From Peptococcaceae bacterium BRH_c23 (GTDB lineage: Bacteria > Bacillota_B > Desulfitobacteriia > Desulfitobacteriales > Desulfitobacteriaceae): a stretch of DNA of 12,073 bases. This document shows, piece by piece, positions 1,041-12,073 of the stretch (its first letter is position 1; each line of letters begins with the position of its first letter). The position numbers and the translations under genes are program-made. Below the pieces are notes generated by a model. It was given only the letters and a program-made list of their open reading frames with translations, was not told the origin of the DNA and did no database searches. Location of the stretch: assembly GCA_000961805.1 (NCBI GenBank), contig LADV01000233.1:1-12073 (forward strand), in the 5' to 3' direction.

Positions 1041-1200
1041 AGTCCTCGATGGTAAAGGTAGCATTAGACTGTAGCATAAAGCAAGGATATCCGTCGCGAG
1101 GTGGAATCTGAAGGTAGGCAGCGTCAAATCCCCGGTCTGAGGACCACTGACCAAGTTGATAAGCCGAGAGGAGCTTACGTTCATCTATATAATCATGAAA
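1040..1200 (+). mobile_element. Probable group II intron 5' (domain I) fragment
   Basis: The stretch around 1088-1175 (ATCCGTCGCGAGGTGGAATC, then TGAAGGTAGGC, CCGGTCTGAGGACCACTGA, ATAAGCCGAGAGGAGC) resembles from memory the domain I region that precedes the reverse transcriptase in many Firmicutes group II introns. No reverse transcriptase or domain V follows; the downstream sequence switches to a regulator gene within about 150 bases. This would be a dead intron remnant. The 73-codon frame running through it (1101-1322) has no ribosome site and no family resemblance and is not called as a gene. Recognition is by pattern only; a structured RNA of another kind is possible. Confidence 0.4.
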
Positions 1201-1342: not shown

Positions 1343-1663
1343 TTGGTAAAGTCTGAAGAAATAATCGGGACCCGAGATAGAATAATTTATGCTGCTTTAA
1401 CTCTATTTTCTCAAAATGGATTTAGTGCTACCTCCGTCAGACAGATTGCGCAGGAAGTTGGTATTCGTGAAAGCTCTATATATAACCATTTTAGTAGTAA
1501 GGATGAAATTCTTAAGGAAGTACTGTCCAGCTTCGGATTCGGTTTTGTAAAGACAATATTAGAAAAAGATTATTTAAAAGGGGAAATCAAAGATCCCCAT
1601 GCCTTGTTATCCTCAATTATTGACGACATCAGCCAGATCCCGACCTGTTTCTTAGGGTCGTAG
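1343..1663 (+). pseudogene. TetR/AcrR-family regulator, truncated after the DNA-binding domain
   Basis: The N-terminal 45-55 residues are a clear TetR HTH: an ARDRI-type first helix (TRDRIIYAALTLFSQNGF), TSVRQIAQEVG, then the recognition-helix and wing signature SSIYNHFSSKDEIL. The start is a TTG at 1343 with GGTGGG at 1331-1336 as ribosome site; no ATG or GTG is available upstream in frame. The frame stops at 106 codons, against about 190 for the family. From about 1622 the DNA belongs to an unrelated gene read in another frame, so the ligand-binding and dimerisation domain is lost. What is left could at most make an HTH-only protein; I call it a deletion or fusion relic. The truncation may be real or, less likely, an assembly join. 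Confidence 0.8.
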
Positions 1664-2038: not shown

Positions 2039-2089
2039 AAACCAGTAGGTCAATTGCATTAAAATTGACCTACTGGTTTCATTTTTTTC
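2039..2089 (+). terminator. Strong orphan intrinsic terminator
   Basis: A perfect 17-bp stem (2039-2055 with 2063-2079) with a 7-base loop is followed by CATTTTTTTCT. No intact gene ends upstream, so it is left over from a lost gene and now insulates dsdA from read-through. Confidence 0.9.
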
Positions 2090-2204: not shown

Positions 2205-3551
2205 ATGATTTTAGGAAAAAGTATTGAACTATGGCAGCAGGAGTATCCATTGCTAACTGAAATGATCAATACTAAGGAAGTATTCTGGACAAATCCGAAC
2301 TATCAAGCATATACCGATGCCATTTCAAAGATTCCTTTAACTGAAGAGGATTTATTGGATGCGGAGGAACGACTAAAAAGATTTGCACCTTACATAGCAA
2401 AAGCATTTCCGGAAACAAACGAAAGAAACGGGATTATAGAGTCGCCTACAATCAGAATTCCTCGAATGAAAGAGCATATGGAGGAAATGTTTAACCAAAA
2501 AATAATATGTAAAAACTTGTTGCTAAAGTGTGACAGTCATCTCCCTATTTCTGGGTCAATCAAGGCAAGAGGCGGAATTTATGAGGTGCTTAAGCATGCG
2601 GAAGATTTAGCTTTCGAATTTGGAATGCTTACCAGGGAAGATGATTATTCAATTTTAGACAGCGATAAATTTAAAGAGCTCTTTTCTCACTATTCGATTG
2701 TAGTTGGTTCAACAGGAAATTTGGGATTAAGTATTGGCATAATGAGTGCTAAACTCGGGTTCAACGTAACTGTACACATGTCGGCAGATGCCAAGCAATG
2801 GAAAAAAGACCTTCTCGGAAGTATTGGGGTCACTGTGATTGAATATCTGTCGGACTACAGCAAAGCAGTAGAAGAAGGTAGAAAACAGGCCAAGAAAGAC
2901 CCTAATAGCTATTTTGTAGATGACGAGAATTCTAAATATTTATTCCTAGGATATGCAGTTGCAGCACTTAGATTAAAAGATCAGCTTCAAGAGTTAAATG
3001 TTACTGTGGATGAAAACCACCCGTTATTTGTATACCTGCCCTGTGGTGTCGGAGGAGGACCCGGCGGAGTGGCGTTTGGACTAAAACAAATTTATAAGGA
3101 TCATGTGCATTGCTTCTTTGCTGAGCCCACTCATTCACCTTGTATGTTGATTGGATGCATGATCGGGGAACACGATAAAGTAAGTGTACAGGATTTTGGA
3201 ATTGACAACATCACTGCTGCGGATGGACTAGCCGTGGGCAGAGCGTCAAGATTTGTTGGAAAAACAATGGAAAATTTGTTAAGTGGCATTTACACTGTAA
3301 ACGACAATACGTTATATAGGCTGTTAAGCGCTCTGGCAGATACAGAAGACATATACGTTGAACCTTCAGCACTGGCAGGTGCCCCAGGGGTATTTAAGTT
3401 GTTTATGACGGAAGCAGGGCAAAGATATCTAGAAAATCAAGGTTTAAAAGGCAAAATGCTGAATGCTTCCCATATTGTATGGGCAACTGGCGGCAACATG
3501 GTGCCGGAAGCAGAAATGAATCAATACTACCGAAAAGGTCTAGTACTGTGA
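2205..3551 (+). CDS. dsdA: D-serine dehydratase (D-serine ammonia-lyase), PLP enzyme
   Basis: Cytoplasmic enzyme converting D-serine to pyruvate and ammonia, used to detoxify or feed on D-serine. The 448 residues match the usual DsdA length of about 440. The PLP Schiff-base lysine is K120 in [14 protein letters not shown], close to the equivalent lysine of the E. coli enzyme. Other family marks are the GSTGNLGLS segment, the glycine-rich CGVGGGPGG phosphate-binding loop, [17 protein letters not shown], and the C-terminal [12 protein letters not shown]. The start is the ATG at 2205, preceded by GAGGGG at a good distance. It stands alone, between a terminator and a duplicated non-coding block, rather than in a dsdXA operon. 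No frameshift or missing key residue was seen, so it should be active. It fits functionally with the D-aminoacylase further right. Confidence 0.96.
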
Positions 3552-3650: not shown

Positions 3651-3741
3651 CTGTGTAGTCATGAACAATGGAGAAAATGAGTCTTTCTTACAGAAAAGAG
3701 ATAAGATTGGGCTTTGGAGCTATTTTGGAAAAAAGGCATAA
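3651..3741 (+). pseudogene. Relic 3' end of a MerR-Trm112-methyltransferase fusion gene
   Basis: The frame ending at the TAA 3739-3741 reads CVVMNNGENESFLQKRDKIG and then LWSYFGKKA, matching residues 378-406 of the intact protein at 5529-6749 with L-to-M and G-to-R changes. Nothing of the gene remains upstream of 3651, where sequence similarity stops abruptly. It is an untranslated tail left by a duplication or deletion. Confidence 0.9.
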
Positions 3742-3748
3742 AATAGGT

Positions 3749-3801
3749 AAACATAAAACAAAAAACCTGAAAGTTAACTTCAGGTTTTTTGTTTTATGTT
3801 T
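3749..3801 (+). terminator. Terminator hairpin, repeat copy 1
   Basis: A perfect 23-bp stem (3749-3771 with 3779-3801) with a 7-base loop and A-rich and T-rich arms, so it can act in both directions. It differs from the copy at 6757-6808 but stays fully paired, because a T and an A that pair with each other replace an A and a T. Confidence 0.85.
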
Positions 3802-3823
3802 ATAATTATCTTAATTTTACTAA

Positions 3824-3852
3824 TTGACTTAAAGCAAACTTCATGATTTATA
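3824..3852 (+). promoter_or_regulatory. Promoter-like sequence, repeat copy 1
   Basis: TTGACT at 3824-3829, a 17-base spacer, and TTTATA at 3847-3852 with an upstream TG (extended -10). The counterpart at 6831-6859 precedes the D-aminoacylase gene. Here it could drive the hydrolase at 4129. Confidence 0.4.
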
Positions 3853-3898
3853 CTTTATAAAAGGATAGTTAGGATTTTCAATAAGAGGACTGGAATAA

Positions 3899-4004
3899 TC
3901 TGGGTGGCATCTACGGCCGTAAAGTAGGGAACCAGGAGGCTCCTAGGTTTATTAATGTAGGTGCAGCTTCCAATGAAGAGGCGGAAGCTATGAGTTGTGG
4001 ATAA
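3899..4004 (+). other. Conserved GC-richer leader segment, copy 1
   Basis: Counterpart of 6907-7010, with about six differences over roughly 105 bases. The AGCTTCC/GGAAGCT stem is unchanged; the AACC...GGTT stem is kept while its inner bases change. See the entry for copy 2 for interpretation. Confidence 0.45.
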
Positions 4005-4032
4005 AAATACAAAGTAAATGGGAGATTAATAA

Positions 4033-4092
4033 ATGTTTGATATTTTAATTAAGAACCCTTTAATTTCAACGGTTACAGCATTTTTAAAATAA
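4033..4092 (+). pseudogene. Relic 5' end of a D-aminoacylase gene, 19 codons
   Basis: ATG plus MFDILIKN match the first eight residues of the D-aminoacylase at 7039 (MFDIIIKN), and the GGGAG ribosome site is also copied. After AAGAAC (4056) the sequence diverges to PLISTVTAFLK and a TAA. It could still be translated as a 19-residue leader peptide upstream of the hydrolase, but I see no sign of selection for it. Confidence 0.8.
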
Positions 4093-4128: not shown

Positions 4129-5305
4129 ATGATAGTCGAAACCACCCTTTACGTCCTCTCCGCCGTCGCAGTGACAGCCGGTGTCGCCGCCGGTGTGCTC
4201 AAAGTCAGCCGTAACAAGATCAAGCGCGAACTGAAAATCGACACACCGAACGGCATCCAGATTAGCGAAAAGGTCATGATCGGTGGCATCCCGCAGTGGA
4301 TTCAGATCCGCGGCGAAGACCGCGGCAATCCGATCCTGTTCTTCCTCCACGGCGGGCCGGGCGGTGATCAATCTGACACATTTCTACCAGAAGGAATGGG
4401 AAAAGCATTTCACCGTCGTCAACTGGGACCAGCGCGCCTCCGGCAAAACGCGGTTCGAGTCGGATGCGGAGGAAGTGAAGAAGACCATTACGATGGAGCG
4501 CATGATCGAAGACGCATGCGAGGTCGCGAAATACATTCGCAAGCGCATCGGGCAGGATCGCATCGTTGTCCTCGGCCAGAGCTGGGGCAGCGCGCTCGGC
4601 TCGCAGCTCGTGTTGAAATACCCGGAGCTCTTCTCCGCGTTTATCGGCACCGGACAGGTCGTCGACACCACAAAGAATTTTCAGCTCGGCTATGAGCGCG
4701 CGCTGGCCATGTCCGAGGCGGCCGGTGATGAGGCGATGAACAAGAATCTCATCAAGGTCAAGCAACTCGAACGCGAGGGCAAGATCTCCTTCCACGACAA
4801 GGAGTTTCAGAAGGTCTACATCTCCGCAATTACGAAATACGGCATTGCCTCGTTCAAGTTCCGCAACCGCGTAAAGGCTATGCTTTTGTTTCTGCGCATC
4901 ATGCTCACCTCGCCGGAAAACACGGTGTGTGAGGTGCTGCAGCGCAGATTCGGCAAAAAGAACACCGTCAATCTGTTCCTCGATTTCTGCAAGAGCCCTG
5001 AGTTTGATAAGTGGAGGCTGGACGAGCTCGGCACGGAGTTCGCCGTCCCTTATTATCAGATTAACGGCGACAACGACTGGCAGACGCCCTATCCGCTGGC
5101 ACGGGAGTATTACGACCGCGTCGAAGCGCCAAAGAAGTGCTGGTATACGTTGAATGATGCCGGACATGCGGTGCAGTTCGACAACCTAACCGACTTCACA
5201 CGGTATCTGATAGAGATCCGCGCCGAGCTCTTCGGTCAAGATAACCTCATCGGCAAGCTGGGGATGCATCAAGAGGATACCAGGTTGGGCTTGTTGACAA
5301 ACTGA
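4129..5305 (+). pseudogene. Membrane-anchored alpha/beta hydrolase (proline-iminopeptidase-like, S33), frameshifted
   Basis: Alpha/beta hydrolase with catalytic elements in the usual order: oxyanion-hole HGGPGG (4348-4365), nucleophile serine in GQSWGS, an acid in NGDNDWQTP and the histidine in DAGHAVQF. Residues about 5-25 form one hydrophobic segment followed by a basic patch, suggesting an N-terminal membrane anchor. The start is the ATG at 4129 behind an excellent AAGGAGGT. The coding frame changes between 4360 and 4369, right after HGGPGG: the upstream half runs in frame 1 and the rest, from INLTHFYQKEWEKHF on, in the next frame. A 2-base loss or 1-base gain explains this, leaving about 391 residues if corrected. 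Unless it is a sequencing error, the active-site serine is not translated from this start. Its GC is far higher than its neighbours, indicating transfer from another genome. The last residues (from about 5271) are insertion-sequence DNA, so the native C-terminus is probably lost. Substrate unknown. Confidence 0.85.
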
Positions 5306-5406
5306 ATAAAAAGGTACATGCTGAATCATAGTGTTCCGAGTATTTAAAACTCCAGAACACTCTTTTTTTGTGCTATTTGTCAACAAGCCCGGTTAGCTAT
5401 CCTCTT
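5271..5406. repeat. Imperfect long inverted repeat: paired insertion-sequence ends or MITE
   Basis: Two 31-base arms face each other: 5271-5301 and 5376-5406. Each has a 9-base perfect outer part (AAGAGGATA / TATCCTCTT), a 7-base mismatched middle, and a 15-base perfect inner part (GGGCTTGTTGACAAA / TTTGTCAACAAGCCC). The mismatched middle contains GGTT next to the inner repeat on both sides in the same orientation. Either two ends of the same IS type meet here in opposite orientation, or a roughly 104-base MITE bounded by the 15-base repeats (5287-5390) sits between GGTT target duplications inside a small hairpin. The right arm continues into a transposase C-terminus. Confidence 0.75.
5330..5369 (+). 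terminator. Hairpin terminator inside the inverted repeat
   Basis: AGTGTTC (5330-5336) pairs with GAACACT (5355-5361), with an inner GAG/CTC pair, followed by C and seven Ts. It would stop transcription of the hydrolase. Being central in the inverted repeat, it may also be part of the mobile element. Confidence 0.7.
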
Positions 5407-5528: not shown

Positions 5529-6749
5529 ATGAAGATACGTAGCTTTGCCAAAAAGCATAATGTATCCGAATCAACTGTCAGGTATTATATGAAACAGGGA
5601 TTATTAATGCCTAATAGGAAAAACAAACAATATGACTTCGACGAAGAGTGTTCCAAAAACCTCGAGAATGTAAAATTGCTCAAAGATCTAGATTTTTCGC
5701 TTGCAAAAATAAAGAGTATCATTTTATATCAAGTCATAAATGAAAGCTTTAACTTTGGAAATAATGAGTATTTTCTCAAGATGTTTAGAGACAAAAGAGA
5801 AATTCTTCTATTGGAGCGGAATAAACTGGATGATAAAATTACTAAATTGTGTACGAAAATTGAAGAATCAAAAACCCACCACTCCCAACAGAACAAAACA
5901 GTGGGAGTACCAATAGATTTTCTGGAATATCTTTATTGCCCTACATGTCTGGTTCCTCTGGTGATTATTGAGGGAAAAATAGAGAATGGAGAGATCAACT
6001 GGGGGACATTAAGTTGCCCTTGTGGATTCTCGGCCAGAATTGATGATGGAATCTTAATAGTAGATGATCTGGATAAACAGTCAAACCGACCTAACCCCGA
6101 AGAGATAAAAATGAGTGTTGCTACTAATAGTGACCTAAATGTTGTCAAGCTTATCTGGGGCACCATAAAATGGTGTTTTAATAGATATGAATCTGTAAAA
6201 GTGTCCAGTAAAATTATCCTAAAGCATGATATAGGAATCGGGGTCTTAGACATTAAACTATGTTCTTTATTGCCCGAAGGTTATTATTATATAATGGTGG
6301 AAGAGGAGATTGAATTTCTCCGTGATAGTAGAAAAAACATAGAAATGAATGGATCCAAGGCAAAATTGATCTATATGTGCACTAAATTTACCCAGGTGCC
6401 TCTTAAAAATAATTCCGTGGATTTGATCATCGATAAAATATGCAGTCCCACTGTGGATCTTACCCAAGAAAAATACGCCATAGAAATCTTACAAGAGAAA
6501 CTAAAAGTTGGGGGCAGCTATCTAGGTGTTTATTTGTATTTAGCAGGAAATGGGGTACCGAAACTGATGAAGTGCGGTCTTTCCCCTTATTTTAAACTAG
6601 ATAAGATCAAAAATAGCTTAGCAAACATCTTTACGGAAGTGGATTGCCAGGATTTTGGCTGTGTGGTCTTGAACAATGGAGAAAATGAGTCTTTCTTACA
6701 GAAAGGAGATAAGATTGGGCTTTGGAGCTATTTTGGAAAAAAGGCATAA
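5529..6749 (+). CDS. MerR-type HTH / Trm112-like zinc ribbon / methyltransferase-like fusion protein
   Basis: A 406-residue cytoplasmic protein, probably a transcriptional regulator. Residues 1-65 are a MerR-type winged helix (MKIRSFAKKHNVSESTVRYY, MKQGLLMP, then QYDFDEE). Residues about 80-118 are charged and helical, the usual MerR dimerisation coiled coil. Residues 131-180 form a Trm112-like zinc ribbon: LYCPTC (C137, C140), then LSCPCGF (C163, C165) and IDDGILIVDD. Residues about 195-345 look like a class I SAM methyltransferase fold: VPLKNNSVDLIID fits the segment after motif II, and EILQEKLKVGGSYLGVYLYL the late strand. The glycine-rich motif I is not evident, so activity is uncertain. 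The start is the ATG at 5529 behind GGAGGG; the frame is open further up to 5421, but that part is IS-derived. A relic of its 3' end lies at 3651-3741. It sits before the D-aminoacylase genes, separated by a terminator, and is their likely local regulator. Confidence 0.8.
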   Translation: MKIRSFAKKHNVSESTVRYYMKQGLLMPNRKNKQYDFDEECSKNLENVKLLKDLDFSLAKIKSIILYQVINESFNFGNNEYFLKMFRDKREILLLERNKLDDKITKLCTKIEESKTHHSQQNKTVGVPIDFLEYLYCPTCLVPLVIIEGKIENGEINWGTLSCPCGFSARIDDGILIVDDLDKQSNRPNPEEIKMSVATNSDLNVVKLIWGTIKWCFNRYESVKVSSKIILKHDIGIGVLDIKLCSLLPEGYYYIMVEEEIEFLRDSRKNIEMNGSKAKLIYMCTKFTQVPLKNNSVDLIIDKICSPTVDLTQEKYAIEILQEKLKVGGSYLGVYLYLAGNGVPKLMKCGLSPYFKLDKIKNSLANIFTEVDCQDFGCVVLNNGENESFLQKGDKIGLWSYFGKKA

Positions 6750-6756
6750 AATAGGT

Positions 6757-6808
6757 AAACAAAAAACAAAAAACCTGAAGTTAACTTCAGGTTTTTTGTT
6801 TTTTGTTT
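6757..6808 (+). terminator. Terminator of the MerR-type fusion gene, repeat copy 2
   Basis: A 52-base perfect palindrome (26-bp arms, centre GTTAAC) with A-rich and T-rich arms, beginning 8 bases after the TAA. It separates the regulator from the D-aminoacylase operon and can terminate in both directions. Confidence 0.88.
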
Positions 6809-6830
6809 ATAATTATCTTAATTTTACTAA

Positions 6831-6859
6831 TTGACTTAAAGCAACCTTCATGATTTAAA
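6831..6859 (+). promoter_or_regulatory. Likely promoter of the D-aminoacylase/dpp operon
   Basis: TTGACT at 6831-6836, a 17-base spacer and TTTAAA at 6854-6859 with an extended TG at 6851-6852. It is followed by a leader of about 170 bases before the ATG at 7039. TTGACT is unchanged in copy 1. Confidence 0.45.
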
Positions 6860-6906
6860 CTTTATAAAAGGATAGTTAGGATTTTCAATAAGAGAACTGG
6901 GGCAAT

Positions 6907-7010
6907 CTGGGTGGCATCTACTGCCGTGAAGTAGGGAACCAGGAGGCTCTCAGGTTTATTAATGTAGGTGCAGCTTCCAATAAAGAGGCGGAAGCTATGG
7001 GTTGTGGATA
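6907..7010 (+). other. Conserved GC-richer leader; candidate structured RNA or relic of a TnpB tail
   Basis: This block in the 5' leader of the D-aminoacylase operon is richer in G than its surroundings. It can form several short stems: CTACT/AGTAG (6918-6922, 6930-6934), AACC/GGTT (6937-6940, 6953-6956) and AGCTTCC/GGAAGCT (6972-6978, 6990-6996). The last is unchanged in copy 1 although its loop changes. It fits none of the riboswitch classes I recognise. Both copies also hold an open frame from about 6890 to 7010 (GNQEA, then RFINVGAASN) ending in a stop, which loosely recalls the tails of IS200/IS605 TnpB genes, whose 3' ends encode omega-RNA. Neither reading is secure. Confidence 0.35.
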
Positions 7011-7038
7011 AAAATACAAAGTACTGGGAGATTAATAA

Positions 7039-8631
7039 ATGTTTGATATTATAATTAAGAACGGGATTATTGTAGATGGAACAGGAGAAAAAAGATATAA
7101 AGGAAATATAGGGATAAAAGATGGAAAGATTACATTTGTAGGAAGTTGCTGCGAAAATGAAATAAGTGAAGCAAAAGAAATTATTAATGCAGAAGGGCTA
7201 ATAATTACTCCTGGATTTATTGATTTTCATAGCCATAGTGATTTTGTTCTATTAGTGGAAACAAGAGCAACAAATATGCTGAAACAAGGTATTACAACTG
7301 AAGTTACCGGTCATTGCGGCTTATCCCTGATACCATTATCTGATGAGATAGTAAGACAAATGAAACCGTATATTCCAAGTGAAAAATACAATGAGTTGGC
7401 TGTAATTTCTCGAAGGCCTCCAGACATTATTAGCAAAATAGAAAAAAGTAATTTAGGAACAAACATTGCATTTCTGGTTGGACATGGGACAATAAGAGCC
7501 GAAGTTATGGGATATGAAGATAGAAAGCCGAGCGATAAAGAACTGGAGAAAATGAAAGCTTTAATCAGGGAGGCAATGGAAGCAGGGGCAATAGGCATGT
7601 CATCAGGGCTTATTTATCCACCGGGAGTATATGCAAAAGAGGAAGAATTGACAGAATTATGTAAAATAGTCTCTGAGCACGGTGGCATATATACTTCACA
7701 TATGAGAAGTGAATCCAATTTTGTGATTGATTCCGTAAAGGAAACTATAAGAATAGGCGAAAATGCTAAATTGCCTGTAGTTATTTCTCATCATAAAATC
7801 GCAGGAAAACAAAACTGGGGAAAATCAAAAGAAACATTAAAACTGATTGAAGAAGCTAATTTTAAGGGAATTAAGGTCAGATTGGACCAATATCCATATA
7901 AAGCAGGAGCTACATCTTTAATGAGTGCACTTCCTCCTAATTATGCAGTTGATGGATTCTCAAAACTGCTTGAAAAGCTTCAAGATAAAAAAATCAGACA
8001 TGAAATAAAACAATTGCTAATGAGCAATCAAGTCGATTTTGAGAATCTTATTTATGGCTGTGGACTTGACGGCGTTCTTATAGTTGAAGCGCCAACGACG
8101 AAAGAATTGTGTGGGAAGACAATAGCTCAACTAGCAAAAGAATTAAATAAAGATCCATACGATACAATATTTGATTTGCTAATTGAAAATGAAGGCAATG
8201 TAGGTGCTGTATATTTCATGATGGACTATGAAGATATAGAAAGAATCATGGCATACAAATTTACAATGGGAGGAACTGATGCCATATACATTAACGAGCA
8301 ATTGCCTGCAGGACATCCAAGATTTACAGGAACATTTACTAAAATACTAAGTGAATATATAAGAGATAAAAAAATAGTTTCGTTAGAAGAAGGAATAAGA
8401 AAATTGACTTCAATGCCTGCAGATATAGCAGGATTTAGCACTAAAGGGATAATTAAAGAGGGTTATGATGCAGATTTAGTTATTTTAGATTATGAAAATC
8501 TTAAAGCAAATTCAGACTTTATTAATCCATCTGCTCCAAATGAAGGAGTAAAGTATGTTCTGGTAAATGGTAAAATTGCAGTAAAAGATGACACTATAAC
8601 AGGTATATGTGCTGGAAAAGTAATTAGATAA
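7039..8631 (+). CDS. N-acyl-D-amino-acid deacylase (D-aminoacylase), amidohydrolase superfamily
   Basis: Cytoplasmic zinc amidohydrolase that splits N-acyl-D-amino acids into a carboxylate and a free D-amino acid. At 530 residues it has the family length. The metal-binding set is visible: HxH in DFHSHSD (H64, H66), cysteine C93 in TGHCG, H221 in TSHMRSE, H251 in ISHHK, and the catalytic aspartate D414 in GGTDA. These lie close to the equivalent positions of the Alcaligenes enzyme (C96, H220, H250, D366), apart from the last, which is displaced by a longer central insert. The N-terminal strand (IIKNGIIVDGTG) and C-terminal GYDADLVILD are the usual small beta domain. The start is ATG 7039 behind GGGAG. 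It leads a run with dppBCD in the same direction and short gaps, so it is probably the first gene of that operon. Related D-glutamate and D-aspartate deacylases cannot be excluded. Confidence 0.92.
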   Translation: MFDIIIKNGIIVDGTGEKRYKGNIGIKDGKITFVGSCCENEISEAKEIINAEGLIITPGFIDFHSHSDFVLLVETRATNMLKQGITTEVTGHCGLSLIPLSDEIVRQMKPYIPSEKYNELAVISRRPPDIISKIEKSNLGTNIAFLVGHGTIRAEVMGYEDRKPSDKELEKMKALIREAMEAGAIGMSSGLIYPPGVYAKEEELTELCKIVSEHGGIYTSHMRSESNFVIDSVKETIRIGENAKLPVVISHHKIAGKQNWGKSKETLKLIEEANFKGIKVRLDQYPYKAGATSLMSALPPNYAVDGFSKLLEKLQDKKIRHEIKQLLMSNQVDFENLIYGCGLDGVLIVEAPTTKELCGKTIAQLAKELNKDPYDTIFDLLIENEGNVGAVYFMMDYEDIERIMAYKFTMGGTDAIYINEQLPAGHPRFTGTFTKILSEYIRDKKIVSLEEGIRKLTSMPADIAGFSTKGIIKEGYDADLVILDYENLKANSDFINPSAPNEGVKYVLVNGKIAVKDDTITGICAGKVIR

Positions 8632-8681: not shown

Positions 8682-9611
8682 ATGCATAAGTACATTTTAA
8701 AACGTATAATATTACTGATTCCAATAATTTTAGGGGTATCATTCATAGTGTTTTCAATTATGTCTTTTACACCCGGGGATCCAGGAAGGTTAATCTTGGG
8801 CCAAACGGCAAAGCAAGAAGCAGTTGATAGCTTAAATAATGAGCTTGGTTACAACAAACCATTCCTTGTAAGATACGTAAACTATGTAGCCAAAGCAGCA
8901 ACAGGAGATTTCGGGAATTCATACAGGACAGGCAATCCTGTATTTAAAGAAATATTTACCCGATTTCCAACAACAATGACAATAGCACTTTTAGCAGTAA
9001 TTACAGGAGTAGTGTTGGGTATACCGTTAGGAATTCTATCAGCAGTAAAGCAATATTCAACTGTAGATTTTATAAGCACAGTAGCAGCGATGCTAATGGC
9101 ATCAATACCTGGATTTTGGCTTGGACTTATGATGATCATATTATTTTCACTGAAGCTAGGATGGCTTCCATCAAACGGAGTAGGAAGTTTTGCACACTTC
9201 ATAATGCCCACAATAATACTCTCAATACCTTTTGCAGCCCAATTATTAAGAATGACAAGAACAACCATGCTTGAAACAATAAGGCAAGACTATATAAGAA
9301 CTGCCAGAGCAAAGGGAGCAACTGAAAGAACAGTTATTTGGAAACATGCACTAAAAAATGCATTGTTACCGGTAATAACTGTAGCTGGAATGGAATTAGG
9401 AGCCTTGCTGGGAGGAACTGTTGTAGCAGAGGCGGTCTTTTCCATCCCGGGAATAGGGACGCTTATATTGACAGCAATAAGGATGAAGGATATCCCGCAG
9501 GTAATGGCGACAGTTATATTTTTAGCATCATTATTCTGCATTATTATGATGTTGGTAGATATACTTTCTTCATTTATTGATCCAAGAATAAGAGCAAGGT
9601 ATGTTAAATAA
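8682..9611 (+). CDS. dppB: Peptide ABC transporter permease, DppB/OppB type
   Basis: One of two transmembrane subunits of a Dpp/Opp-family importer. It has 309 residues, the family length, starting with the typical first helix (ILKRIILLIPIILGVSFIVF) and FTPGDPG, then hydrophobic segments spread to the C-terminus. The EAA loop that contacts the ATPases is DYIRTARAKGATERTVIWKH followed by ALKNALLPV. It ends with FIDPRIRARYVK, the normal DppB ending. The start is ATG 8682 after a purine-rich GGAAGTGGG, 50 bases behind D-aminoacylase. Dpp, Opp, App and Nik permeases cannot be separated by sequence alone; the neighbour suggests peptides or acyl-amino acids carrying D residues. Confidence 0.93.
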   Translation: MHKYILKRIILLIPIILGVSFIVFSIMSFTPGDPGRLILGQTAKQEAVDSLNNELGYNKPFLVRYVNYVAKAATGDFGNSYRTGNPVFKEIFTRFPTTMTIALLAVITGVVLGIPLGILSAVKQYSTVDFISTVAAMLMASIPGFWLGLMMIILFSLKLGWLPSNGVGSFAHFIMPTIILSIPFAAQLLRMTRTTMLETIRQDYIRTARAKGATERTVIWKHALKNALLPVITVAGMELGALLGGTVVAEAVFSIPGIGTLILTAIRMKDIPQVMATVIFLASLFCIIMMLVDILSSFIDPRIRARYVK

Positions 9612-9667
9612 ATCATATGCTGGGCATAAACTGAAAGCTCACAGCCAACATTAAAGGAGCTAAAATA

Positions 9668-10543
9668 ATGAGTCAAATCGAAAGTAAATACAAGAAAAAA
9701 AGTCAAGTAGGAGAAATATGGAGACGATTGAAGAAAAACAGAGCAGCAATGGTAGGATTGGTAATATTAAGTATATTTGCACTATCTGCTATATTTGCAG
9801 ACGTTTTAGCAAATTACGATAAAATGGTAATAGCTCAAAATGTCAGAGAAAGATTACTGCCGCCAAGCAGTCACCATTTGTTTGGTACGGACGAATACGG
9901 AAGAGATGTTTTCGCCAGAATAGTACATGGGGCGCGGGTATCCCTGACAATAGGATTATCAACCGTGAGCATATCAATACTAATAGGAGGCATAATCGGA
10001 TCAATGGCAGGATTCTACGGCGGAATCATTGACACCATTATAATGAGGATAATGGATACAATGCAGGCTATACCTCCAATATTATTAGCGCTTGCATTAG
10101 TATCGGCATTGGGGCCAGGAATGACAAATCTGCTAATTGCAATTACCGTTGCAACTTTTCCGGGATATACCAGAATAATTAGATCAGTAATATTGCCGGT
10201 GGTAGGTCAGGAGTTTGTTGAAGCGGCAAGAGCATGTGGTACGGGTGACAGAAGAATTATTTTGCGACATATTTTACCAAATGCAATAGGGCCAATAATT
10301 GTACAATCAACAATGGCAGTAGCTCAGCTGATAATAGCTACGGCGGCGTTAAGTTTCATAGGAATGGGAATACAGCCGCCAAAGCCTGAATGGGGAGCAA
10401 TGCTGGCAGGATCAAGAGAATATATGAGAACTTCGCCTTATCTTGTTATATTCCCAGGATTAGCTATCGTACTCGCTGCACTGTCACTTAATCTGTTGGG
10501 CGATGGACTAAGAGACGCTCTTGATCCGAGGCTAAAGAACTAA
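9668..10543 (+). CDS. dppC: Peptide ABC transporter permease, DppC/OppC type
   Basis: Partner of the preceding permease, with 291 residues. It has the long cytoplasmic N-terminus ending in RLKKNRAAMVGLVILSIF, the HHLFGTDEYGRDVFARIVHG motif that is diagnostic of DppC/OppC, and the EAA loop FVEAARACGTGDRRIILRHI with LPN following. The C-terminal LNLLGDGLRDALDPRLKN is canonical. The ribosome site AAAGGAG precedes ATG 9668, and the 56-base gap after dppB holds nothing notable. All parts needed for function appear present. Confidence 0.95.
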   Translation: MSQIESKYKKKSQVGEIWRRLKKNRAAMVGLVILSIFALSAIFADVLANYDKMVIAQNVRERLLPPSSHHLFGTDEYGRDVFARIVHGARVSLTIGLSTVSISILIGGIIGSMAGFYGGIIDTIIMRIMDTMQAIPPILLALALVSALGPGMTNLLIAITVATFPGYTRIIRSVILPVVGQEFVEAARACGTGDRRIILRHILPNAIGPIIVQSTMAVAQLIIATAALSFIGMGIQPPKPEWGAMLAGSREYMRTSPYLVIFPGLAIVLAALSLNLLGDGLRDALDPRLKN

Positions 10544-10564
10544 TACGATGAAAGGAGTTAATAA

Positions 10565-11530
10565 ATGAGCGAACAACTCTTGAAAATAGAAGATTTGTGG
10601 GTACAATACAAAACAAATGAATGTATTAATAATGCAGTAAACGGGATATCGCTGGTTCTGAACAAAGGTGAAAATATTGGATTGGTTGGAGAAACTGGAG
10701 CTGGTAAGACAACAACAGCACTGAGCATATTAAGTCTTTTACCAAAAGGCATTGGAATAATAACAAAAGGAAAAATTGAATTTGAAGGGCAAGACCTATT
10801 GAAACTCAAAGAAGAAGATAAGAGAAGTATAAGAGGCAGTAAAATAAGCATGATATTTCAAGACCCTATGACTAGTCTGAATCCTGTCCAAACTGTAGGT
10901 GAACAAATAGCAGAAGTATTGTCGTTGCACAATCAAAGCAATGACACGAAAGAACAAATACAAAAAAAAGTAGACGCCTTATTAGAATTAGTGGGGATAC
11001 CTTCAAAAAGAAAAACAGATTATCCACATCAATTTAGTGGAGGTATGAAACAACGAGTAGTAATAGCAATTGCAATAGCATGCGATCCCAAATTATTGAT
11101 AGCAGACGAACCGACAACAGCATTAGACGTAACAATACAAGCTCAGGTATTGGAAATGATGAATAAACTGAAGAAAAAGTTAAATACATCAATGATACTT
11201 ATAACCCATGATTTGGGAATAGTAGCAGAAATGTGCGATAAAGTGGCAATTGTATACTCTGGAGAAATCATTGAATTCGGAACACTGGAAGATATATATG
11301 AAGCTGAAAACCATCATCCATATACAATAGGACTATTTGGATCAATTCCAAACCTGTCCAAGGAAGCACACAGACTAAACTCAATTGGAGGATTAATGCC
11401 TGATCCTACAAATTTACCTTCGGGATGCAAGTTTCATCCAAGATGTCCAAAATGTATGGATATATGCAAAAAAGAAGAACCAAATGTAATAGATAATAAT
11501 GGACATAAAATTAAATGCCATCTCTTTTAA
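10565..11530 (+). CDS. dppD: Peptide ABC transporter ATP-binding protein, DppD/OppD type
   Basis: ATPase subunit with 321 residues. Walker A is GETGAGKTT (residues 42-50), the Q-loop FQDPMTSLNP, the signature FSGGMKQR, Walker B LLIADEPTTALD and the switch histidine in ITHDLG. The C-terminal oligopeptide-transporter extension is present (LPSGCKFHPRCPKCMDICKK, then KCHLF); its cysteine pattern matches the one that binds an iron-sulfur cluster in structurally known DppD/OppD proteins. The start is ATG 10565 after AAAGGAG. Transporters of this type need a second, different ATPase (F), which is broken immediately downstream. Confidence 0.95.
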   Translation: MSEQLLKIEDLWVQYKTNECINNAVNGISLVLNKGENIGLVGETGAGKTTTALSILSLLPKGIGIITKGKIEFEGQDLLKLKEEDKRSIRGSKISMIFQDPMTSLNPVQTVGEQIAEVLSLHNQSNDTKEQIQKKVDALLELVGIPSKRKTDYPHQFSGGMKQRVVIAIAIACDPKLLIADEPTTALDVTIQAQVLEMMNKLKKKLNTSMILITHDLGIVAEMCDKVAIVYSGEIIEFGTLEDIYEAENHHPYTIGLFGSIPNLSKEAHRLNSIGGLMPDPTNLPSGCKFHPRCPKCMDICKKEEPNVIDNNGHKIKCHLF

Positions 11531-11682: not shown

Positions 11683-12073
11683 CTAATTTTTAGTTTTGTA
11701 GCAGTTAGCTGGTAGCTCTTTCGACCAAGGAACAAACTTTTCAATCAGTTCCGGAGATTGGTTGAAATCTGTATTCGGCATCTGTTTCAATAAATAGACC
11801 AGATATTCATAAACTTTTAGGTCGTTGGCCAATGCAGTTTGTATGATGCTGTAAACCATGGAGCTACCGACTGCACCGCGATCCGTTTTCATTGTAACCC
11901 AATTCTTGCGTCCGATTGTAAAAGGACGTATACTTCGTTCGACCAAATTGTTTGTCAGGTCTAGGCGACCGTCTAAAAGGATGTTTTCAAAATACGGCCA
12001 CTGGTTCAGCGCATAATTCACGGCTTCATAAGCATGGGATTTGGGAACGGTAAGGGGCTTTGTCTCTTTAAGC
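11683..12073 (-). CDS. tnpC: IS66-family transposase (TnpC/ORF3), C-terminal part
   Basis: DDE transposase C-terminus, 130 codons visible, frame open to the window edge, so the N-terminal zinc-finger and most of the catalytic core lie outside. The motif LDLTNNLVERSIRPFTIGRK carries the catalytic glutamate of IS66 transposases, followed by NWVTMKTDRGAVGSSMVYSI, then QTALAND and the conserved tail ending in PWSKELPANC. The GTG at 12019-12021 is internal, since matching sequence (PKSHAYEA) continues upstream of it. No break is visible in this part. Confidence 0.93.
   Translation of the reverse strand, partial: LKETKPLTVPKSHAYEAVNYALNQWPYFENILLDGRLDLTNNLVERSIRPFTIGRKNWVTMKTDRGAVGSSMVYSIIQTALANDLKVYEYLVYLLKQMPNTDFNQSPELIEKFVPWSKELPANCYKTKN

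What the first reader, a model, noticed from the sequence alone, without database searches (positions are those of the whole stretch)
3651..4056. A regulator/aminoacylase junction duplicated 3 kb away beside dsdA
A 405-base block is present twice in the same orientation (3651-4056 and 6659-7062), with sharp ends inside two coding genes. Only the 3' tail of the regulator, the whole intergenic control region and the first eight aminoacylase codons were kept in copy 1. Either a tandem copy of the gene pair existed and collapsed, or the control region was copied to drive another gene. Substitutions show the event is old, yet the terminator pairing, promoter -35 and leader stems persist. Between the copies lie a foreign hydrolase and IS ends, and homologous recombination between copies would delete both plus the regulator.
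Basis: seen in the sequence. Interest (0 to 1): 0.7.

Follow-up and report, generated by a model that had tools for sequence, protein, structure and literature searches.

The report
Duplicated control region before foreign hydrolase
A bacterium carries a second, 405-base copy of the on-switch of a D-amino-acid operon directly in front of a foreign hydrolase gene; it is most likely the scar of a gene duplication that once switched that newcomer on, after which the hydrolase decayed.

Summary
The repeat is real: 3651-4056 and 6659-7062 align with 19 substitutions and 2 one-base indels, same orientation, sharp ends. It holds the last ~29 regulator codons, a hairpin terminator, a promoter-like pair with a 19-bp spacer, a ~170-base leader and eight aminoacylase codons. 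Copy 2 joins two intact genes. Copy 1 lies between dsdA and a GC-rich, frameshifted hydrolase, with a 19-codon fusion ORF ahead of it. Best reading: promoter capture by tandem duplication of a ~3-kb unit [hydrolase-regulator-control region-aminoacylase start], joined at 4056|4057; a later deletion removed the first hydrolase and most of the first regulator. This is the known rnk-citT anatomy (passages of PMC5918244), but the history is inferred: no genome with the ancestral order was reached. The regulator is a rare MerR protein with an RlmA-like zinc-ribbon/methyltransferase fold; the 19-bp spacer fits MerR control. The leader matches no Rfam family and was not found elsewhere; it may pair with its own start codon, a modest hint of an unrecognised regulatory RNA. 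Overall: a natural example of a known process, moderate interest.

The parts
2205..3551 (+). dsdA, D-serine ammonia-lyase
   Evidence: NCBIfam PRK02991.1 703 bits and TIGR02035 700 bits, both above cut-off
3651..4056 (+). copy 1 of the block: regulator 3' tail, terminator, promoter, leader, eight aminoacylase codons
3748..3802 (+). hairpin terminator, copy 1 (24-base perfect arms)
3824..3854 (+). promoter-like pair copy 1: TTGACT, 19 bp, TATACT; imperfect dyad 3831-3856 centred in the spacer (9 of 13 symmetric positions)
   Evidence: hexamers by eye; dyad counts
3863..4032 (+). leader copy 1; bases 3948-3956 complementary to 4025-4033 at the start codon
4033..4092 (+). 19-codon ORF: eight aminoacylase codons run on into hydrolase upstream sequence
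4056..4057 (.). proposed tandem-duplication join (aminoacylase codon 8 | hydrolase upstream sequence)
   Evidence: alignment ends here; inference
4129..5305 (+). foreign alpha/beta hydrolase (closest named families: proline-iminopeptidase type), frameshifted near 4360-4380; GC 0.56 (4129-5260), third-position GC 0.77 (4370-5260)
   Evidence: ORFs 4129-4695 and 4283-5305; Pfam Abhydrolase_1 54.3 bits, cut-off 25.8; NCBIfam TIGR01250 41.2 bits, below its cut-off 167.65; relatives aligned; GC
5271..5406 (.). 136-base inverted-repeat element with an inner terminator-like hairpin, overlapping the hydrolase 3' end
5529..6749 (+). regulator: MerR DNA-binding domain plus RlmA-like zinc ribbon and methyltransferase fold
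6659..7062 (+). copy 2 of the block, between the intact regulator and the intact aminoacylase
6756..6809 (+). hairpin terminator, copy 2 (27-base perfect arms)
6831..6861 (+). promoter-like pair copy 2: TTGACT, 19 bp, TAAACT; dyad 6838-6863 (7 of 13)
   Evidence: hexamers by eye
6870..7038 (+). leader copy 2; bases 6955-6963 complementary to 7031-7039
7039..8631 (+). N-acyl-D-amino-acid deacylase (D-aminoacylase)
   Evidence: Pfam Amidohydro_3 96.6 bits, cut-off 29.7; homologues named D-aminoacylase; best NCBIfam model 198 bits, below its cut-off 340
8682..11530 (+). oligopeptide-type ABC transporter genes (OppB-, OppC- and OppD-like)
   Evidence: Pfam BPD_transp_1 and oligo_HPY; NCBIfam Opp/Dpp models match below their cut-offs

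Best explanation
Copy 1 is the remnant of a promoter-capture tandem duplication. Ancestral order (inferred): dsdA - foreign hydrolase without a good promoter - MerR-type regulator - control region - aminoacylase - opp genes. A segment of about 3,006 bp, from just upstream of the hydrolase (4057) to aminoacylase codon 8 (7062), was duplicated in tandem. The new join (4056|4057) put the promoter, the leader and a truncated aminoacylase start in front of the second hydrolase copy, so the hydrolase came under the same control as the D-amino-acid/peptide operon. A later deletion (join 3650|3651) removed the first hydrolase and all but the last ~29 codons of the first regulator, leaving only the 405-bp repeat and so a more stable arrangement. 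The hydrolase has since taken a frameshift between its HGGPG motif and the rest of the fold, so the captured promoter probably drives nothing useful today. Shown: the repeat, its limits, the joins, the foreign composition, the frameshift, the gene order. Inferred: order of events, selection, and MerR control of both promoter copies.
For: The right end of copy 1 passes straight into hydrolase upstream sequence in the coding direction, with the hydrolase ATG 36 bases after the short ORF. The anatomy - promoter, truncated fusion ORF, then the gene gained - is what passages of PMC5918244 describe for rnk-citG/citT, a configuration that 'readily collapses' by recombination without selection. Abstract and passages of PMC11111574 report tandem duplication by illegitimate recombination activating transferred genes in E. 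coli, and a construct built on it working in B. subtilis. Hydrolase GC 0.56 and third-position GC 0.77, against third-position GC 0.22-0.37 for dsdA, regulator, aminoacylase and oppB: a transferred gene. Copy 1 keeps the -35, the 19-bp spacer, a -10 one base closer to TATAAT, the leader and the start codon. Copy 2 is flanked by both complete genes, so it is the likelier source. The regulator has a MerR domain; abstract and passages of PMC1526738 give 19-20-bp spacers with a palindrome as typical of heavy-metal and some other MerR-family promoters; the spacer dyad reaches 9 of 13 in copy 1 (0.54% of shuffles) and 7 of 13 in copy 2 (5.9%) at the fixed centre.
Against: No genome with the ancestral order or with two full units was found, so the two-event history is untested. 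No microhomology can be shown at either join, because the partner sequence is lost. One event (a templated 405-bp insertion) would be numerically simpler. The hydrolase is broken, so a present benefit is absent, and about 5% divergence between copies makes the event old. The dyad is not striking when every centre in the region is allowed (35% of shuffles reach it for copy 1 and 99% for copy 2). The promoter hexamers are by eye and the automatic scan gives no excess over shuffles. MerR binding is not tested.
Confidence: 0.5

Rival explanations
1. The regulator-aminoacylase pair was duplicated in tandem without the hydrolase; the first pair then decayed by deletions, and the hydrolase plus the inverted-repeat element entered later, replacing the rest of the first aminoacylase.
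For: Both flanking genes are represented in copy 1; an inverted-repeat element and an IS66 transposase at the window edge show mobile DNA nearby.
Against: Needs a duplication, at least two deletions and an insertion landing exactly after codon 8; apart from the block, the repeat scan lists no direct repeat above 28 bases in the window, so no further regulator or aminoacylase fragment is visible.
Confidence: 0.25
2. A 405-bp stretch was copied by template switching or gene conversion into the dsdA-hydrolase gap in one step, without a tandem intermediate.
For: One event explains both ends; long perfect hairpins such as the one in the block can provoke template switching (general knowledge, recalled).
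Against: Such short ectopic copies are thought rarer than tandem duplications (recalled); the copy happening to hold a whole control region and to face the hydrolase would be luck or selection.
Confidence: 0.17
3. The block is a member of a dispersed repeat or mobile element family.
For: Hairpin and sharp ends; own genome not available.
Against: Ends fall inside two genes that are whole beside copy 2; no exact pattern match in viral contigs or genome contigs, no leader-model hit in 391 genomes (no positive control), no convincing plasmid match.
Confidence: 0.04
4. Assembly artefact: a chimeric or collapsed repeat.
For: Window source unknown; the hydrolase differs sharply in composition.
Against: Copies differ at 21 columns, so they are not one read set placed twice; the hydrolase cluster stands for 4 sequences on 6 contigs, the regulator cluster for 2 on 12, the aminoacylase cluster for 1 on 15.
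Confidence: 0.04

Closest known systems
rnk-citG tandem duplication of the E. coli long-term experiment (promoter capture of citT; PMC5918244, passages seen)
   Same: A promoter plus a truncated fusion ORF placed in front of a gene by tandem duplication
   Different: Here the duplication is old (about 5% divergence), trimmed to a 405-bp repeat, in an unnamed bacterium, and the gained gene is now frameshifted; the duplication itself is inferred
Activation of horizontally transferred genes by spontaneous tandem duplication (Li and Bock 2019 as cited in PMC11111574; abstract and passages of the latter seen)
   Same: Foreign gene, host promoter, illegitimate join
   Different: Those are laboratory selections with known ancestors; here no ancestor is available
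MerR-family promoters with 19-20-bp spacers (PMC1526738, abstract and passages seen)
   Same: MerR-domain regulator next to a promoter-like pair with a 19-bp spacer and an imperfect spacer dyad
   Different: The effector part is an RlmA-like zinc ribbon and methyltransferase fold; ligand unknown

Membership tests
Promoter-capture tandem duplication | Promoter region repeated in direct orientation upstream of another gene | tested here: met
Promoter-capture tandem duplication | Join fuses the start of the promoter's own gene to sequence upstream of the gained gene | tested here: met
   19-codon ORF 4033-4092 ahead of the hydrolase at 4129
Promoter-capture tandem duplication | Ancestor with a single control region and the gained gene upstream of it | tested here: inconclusive
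   Own genome not held; none of 80 loci with an aminoacylase, many with short flanks, holds the regulator or the hydrolase at E 1e-15; these 80 are only distant relatives
Promoter-capture tandem duplication | Gained gene expressed from the captured promoter | not testable with these tools
   No expression data
MerR-regulated promoter | Neighbouring regulator with a MerR DNA-binding domain | tested here: met
   PF13411 46.7 bits against cut-off 21.6
MerR-regulated promoter | 19-20-bp spacer between -35 and -10 | tested here: met
   19 bp in both copies; the -35/-10 assignment itself is by eye, and one search does not cover this spacing
MerR-regulated promoter | Strong palindrome in the spacer | tested here: inconclusive
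   9 and 7 of 13 symmetric positions; 0.54% and 5.9% of shuffles at the fixed centre, but 35% and 99% when any centre is allowed
Known riboswitch or leader family (Rfam 15) | Covariance-model match of the leader | tested here: not met
   No match up to E 2 in 6800-7045; no match of the whole-window search reached its gathering score

The most novel reading that the evidence does not exclude
The ~170-base leader shared by both copies is an undescribed cis-regulatory RNA that switches translation of a D-amino-acid/peptide operon: bases 6955-6963 can pair perfectly with 7031-7039 at the start codon, or instead join an upstream helix. Its whole module (terminator, promoter, leader, start codon) was then moved by duplication in front of a foreign gene, enlarging a regulon by copying both its DNA and its RNA control at once.
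Probability: 0.13. Interest if true: 0.6.

Novelty: new member of a known kind. Interest (0 to 1): 0.36.

Why it matters
Promoter capture by tandem duplication is best known to me from laboratory evolution. A natural, aged case with its joins still legible, including deletion of the redundant half and decay of the gained gene, would show what becomes of such events in nature. It would also be a case in which a foreign gene was put under a specific metabolic regulator and leader, not a generic promoter. If the leader is a real switch, it would be a new regulatory RNA candidate in D-amino-acid metabolism.

Tried and rejected
Dispersed-repeat reading: a leader pattern gave 0 matches in viral contigs (23 fixed bases) and 0 in genome contigs (a different 23-base pattern); exact matching would miss diverged leaders. 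The block against plasmids at E up to 10 matched 41 records; the ten listed cover 8-15% of the query at E 0.01 to 6 and were judged noise; 31 were not listed. A covariance model of the two leaders found only the two copies and two chance-level hits (E 8.2 and 9.8) in 44 of the 101 sources then held, and 0 of 391 genomes (stricter filters, and the tool notes that an empty answer without a positive control shows nothing).

Of these 80 loci, 1 has dsdA within the held flank, 4 oppB, 3 oppC, 11 oppD, 0 the regulator and 0 the hydrolase at E 1e-15. Searches with the aminoacylase at E 1e-130 matched 2 of 391, 1 of 22, 3 of 150, 1 of 148 and 1 of 6 genomes, 42-43% identical. The regulator profile hit 6 of 391 genomes, 24-27% identical to the window's protein; next to 3 of these 6 lies an MFS transporter, next to 1 (divergent) a sodium:solute symporter, and next to the other 2 an FAD-binding protein and a cellulase-family protein: only weak support for a local regulator.

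T-box, cobalamin and c-di-AMP leaders were considered for the leader by eye (recalled consensus) and dropped. Tying the 136-base inverted repeat to an IS failed: 12 viral contigs hold one 17-base end, and none of the 12 fetched stretches (one of them only part of its contig) holds the 15-base inverted partner; against plasmids only one 20-base match appeared. Paper searches that gave nothing useful.

Full report
Observation. The repeat exists as described. An unguided repeat scan of the window returns it as three adjoining families spaced 3006-3008 bases, and a global alignment shows 19 substitutions and 2 single-base indels in 406 bases. The longest exact runs are 56, 41 and 36 bases. Identity stops abruptly on both sides. 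Copy 2 (6659-7062) connects the end of an intact regulator gene (5529-6749) with the start of an intact aminoacylase gene (7039-8631); copy 1 (3651-4056) has neither gene whole, so copy 2 is the source or nearest to it.

Contents. From left to right: the last ~29 codons of the regulator; a hairpin with 24-base (copy 1) or 27-base (copy 2) perfect arms that folds far better than shuffles and is listed as terminator-like; a promoter-like pair TTGACT-19 bp-TATACT in copy 1 and TTGACT-19 bp-TAAACT in copy 2, assigned by eye; a leader of about 170 bases; the aminoacylase start and eight codons. Differences per part: 3 of 90 in the regulator tail, 3 of 55 in the terminator, 2 of 32 around the promoter, 12 of 171 in the leader, 1 of 23 in the aminoacylase codons, none in the other 35. 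One terminator difference is compensated in the opposite arm; in a palindrome this can also arise by template switching (recalled), so it is not proof of selection.

Neighbours. Upstream is dsdA. Downstream of copy 1 is an alpha/beta hydrolase: Pfam Abhydrolase_1 above its cut-off; the best NCBIfam match is the proline-iminopeptidase type, well below its cut-off. Its GC (0.56) and third-position GC (0.77) stand apart from the neighbours' third-position GC of 0.22-0.37. It is broken: the first frame carries the N-terminus and HGGPG motif, a second frame the rest, whereas the 13 relatives found (34-42% identity) have the motif and the rest in one frame. The protein database holds the 313-residue downstream frame as a cluster of 4 sequences on 6 contigs and, among 14 hits, no near-identical longer form. 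A 136-base inverted-repeat element follows. The aminoacylase is followed by opp-type transporter genes.

History. If the ancestor had the hydrolase between dsdA and the regulator, a tandem duplication of the segment 4057-7062 puts aminoacylase codon 8 next to 4057, exactly the join seen. A second event, deletion from the dsdA flank into the first regulator's tail (3650|3651), gives the present order. The join yields a 19-codon fusion ORF and then the hydrolase start 36 bases on. This is the arrangement that passages of PMC5918244 describe for citT under the rnk promoter, including instability of the full duplication, and the process that the abstract and passages of PMC11111574 describe for transferred genes. 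The rivals (pair duplication with later insertion; one-step copying) are not excluded, because no related genome with this neighbourhood could be reached and the window's genome is not held. One indirect hint of strain variation: the longest contig is 112 kb for the regulator and aminoacylase clusters but 79.5 kb for the hydrolase cluster; contig ends or gene calling could also cause this.

Leader. No Rfam family matches. Single-sequence folding is unremarkable (z -0.85 for copy 2, -1.63 for copy 1). Two results point the other way. First, the 10 differences in 153 aligned leader bases (9 of them transitions) preserve the consensus fold better than random ones: 1.5% of 400 simulations from copy 2 and 6.8% of 400 from copy 1 do as well; no pair is broken, but none covaries, and the fold was derived from the same two sequences. 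Second, nine bases of the leader are exactly complementary to the nine bases ending at the start codon's A in both copies; 0.55% and 0.8% of 2000 shuffled leaders match as well. That pairing is in the best fold of copy 2 but not of copy 1, and the start region is paired only about 60% on average. Both looks were made after seeing the data. A translation-controlling leader is a fair hypothesis and no more.

Verdict. A confirmed, old, partial duplication of a regulatory region, best read as a decayed natural case of promoter capture. Kind known; details instructive; the leader is the part most likely to hold something new.

Noticed in passing
window 5529-6749: Rare MerR regulator fused to an RlmA-like zinc ribbon and methyltransferase fold; only 9 proteins at E 1e-3 in the word-based protein search, while a profile finds distant members in 6 of 391 genomes, 3 of 6 beside an MFS transporter. 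Ligand unknown.
   Followed up: partly
window 5271-5406: 136-base near-perfect inverted repeat with an inner terminator-like hairpin (z -5.84), overlapping the hydrolase 3' end; MITE-like, no IS identified.
   Followed up: partly
window 1343-1663: TetR-type DNA-binding domain in an ORF of only 106 residues, probably truncated.
   Followed up: no
window 1090-1181: Sub-threshold group II intron match (RF02001, 30.3 bits against 32).
   Followed up: no
window 2039-2079: Strong 17-pair terminator-like hairpin between the TetR fragment and dsdA.
   Followed up: no
window 11683-12072: C-terminal part of an IS66 transposase on the minus strand, cut by the window edge.
   Followed up: no
L012 10001-14435: In a Lachnospiraceae MAG a D-aminoacylase (39%) lies about 1.5 kb from a dsdA homologue (60%), the only such pair in 80 loci.
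   Followed up: no
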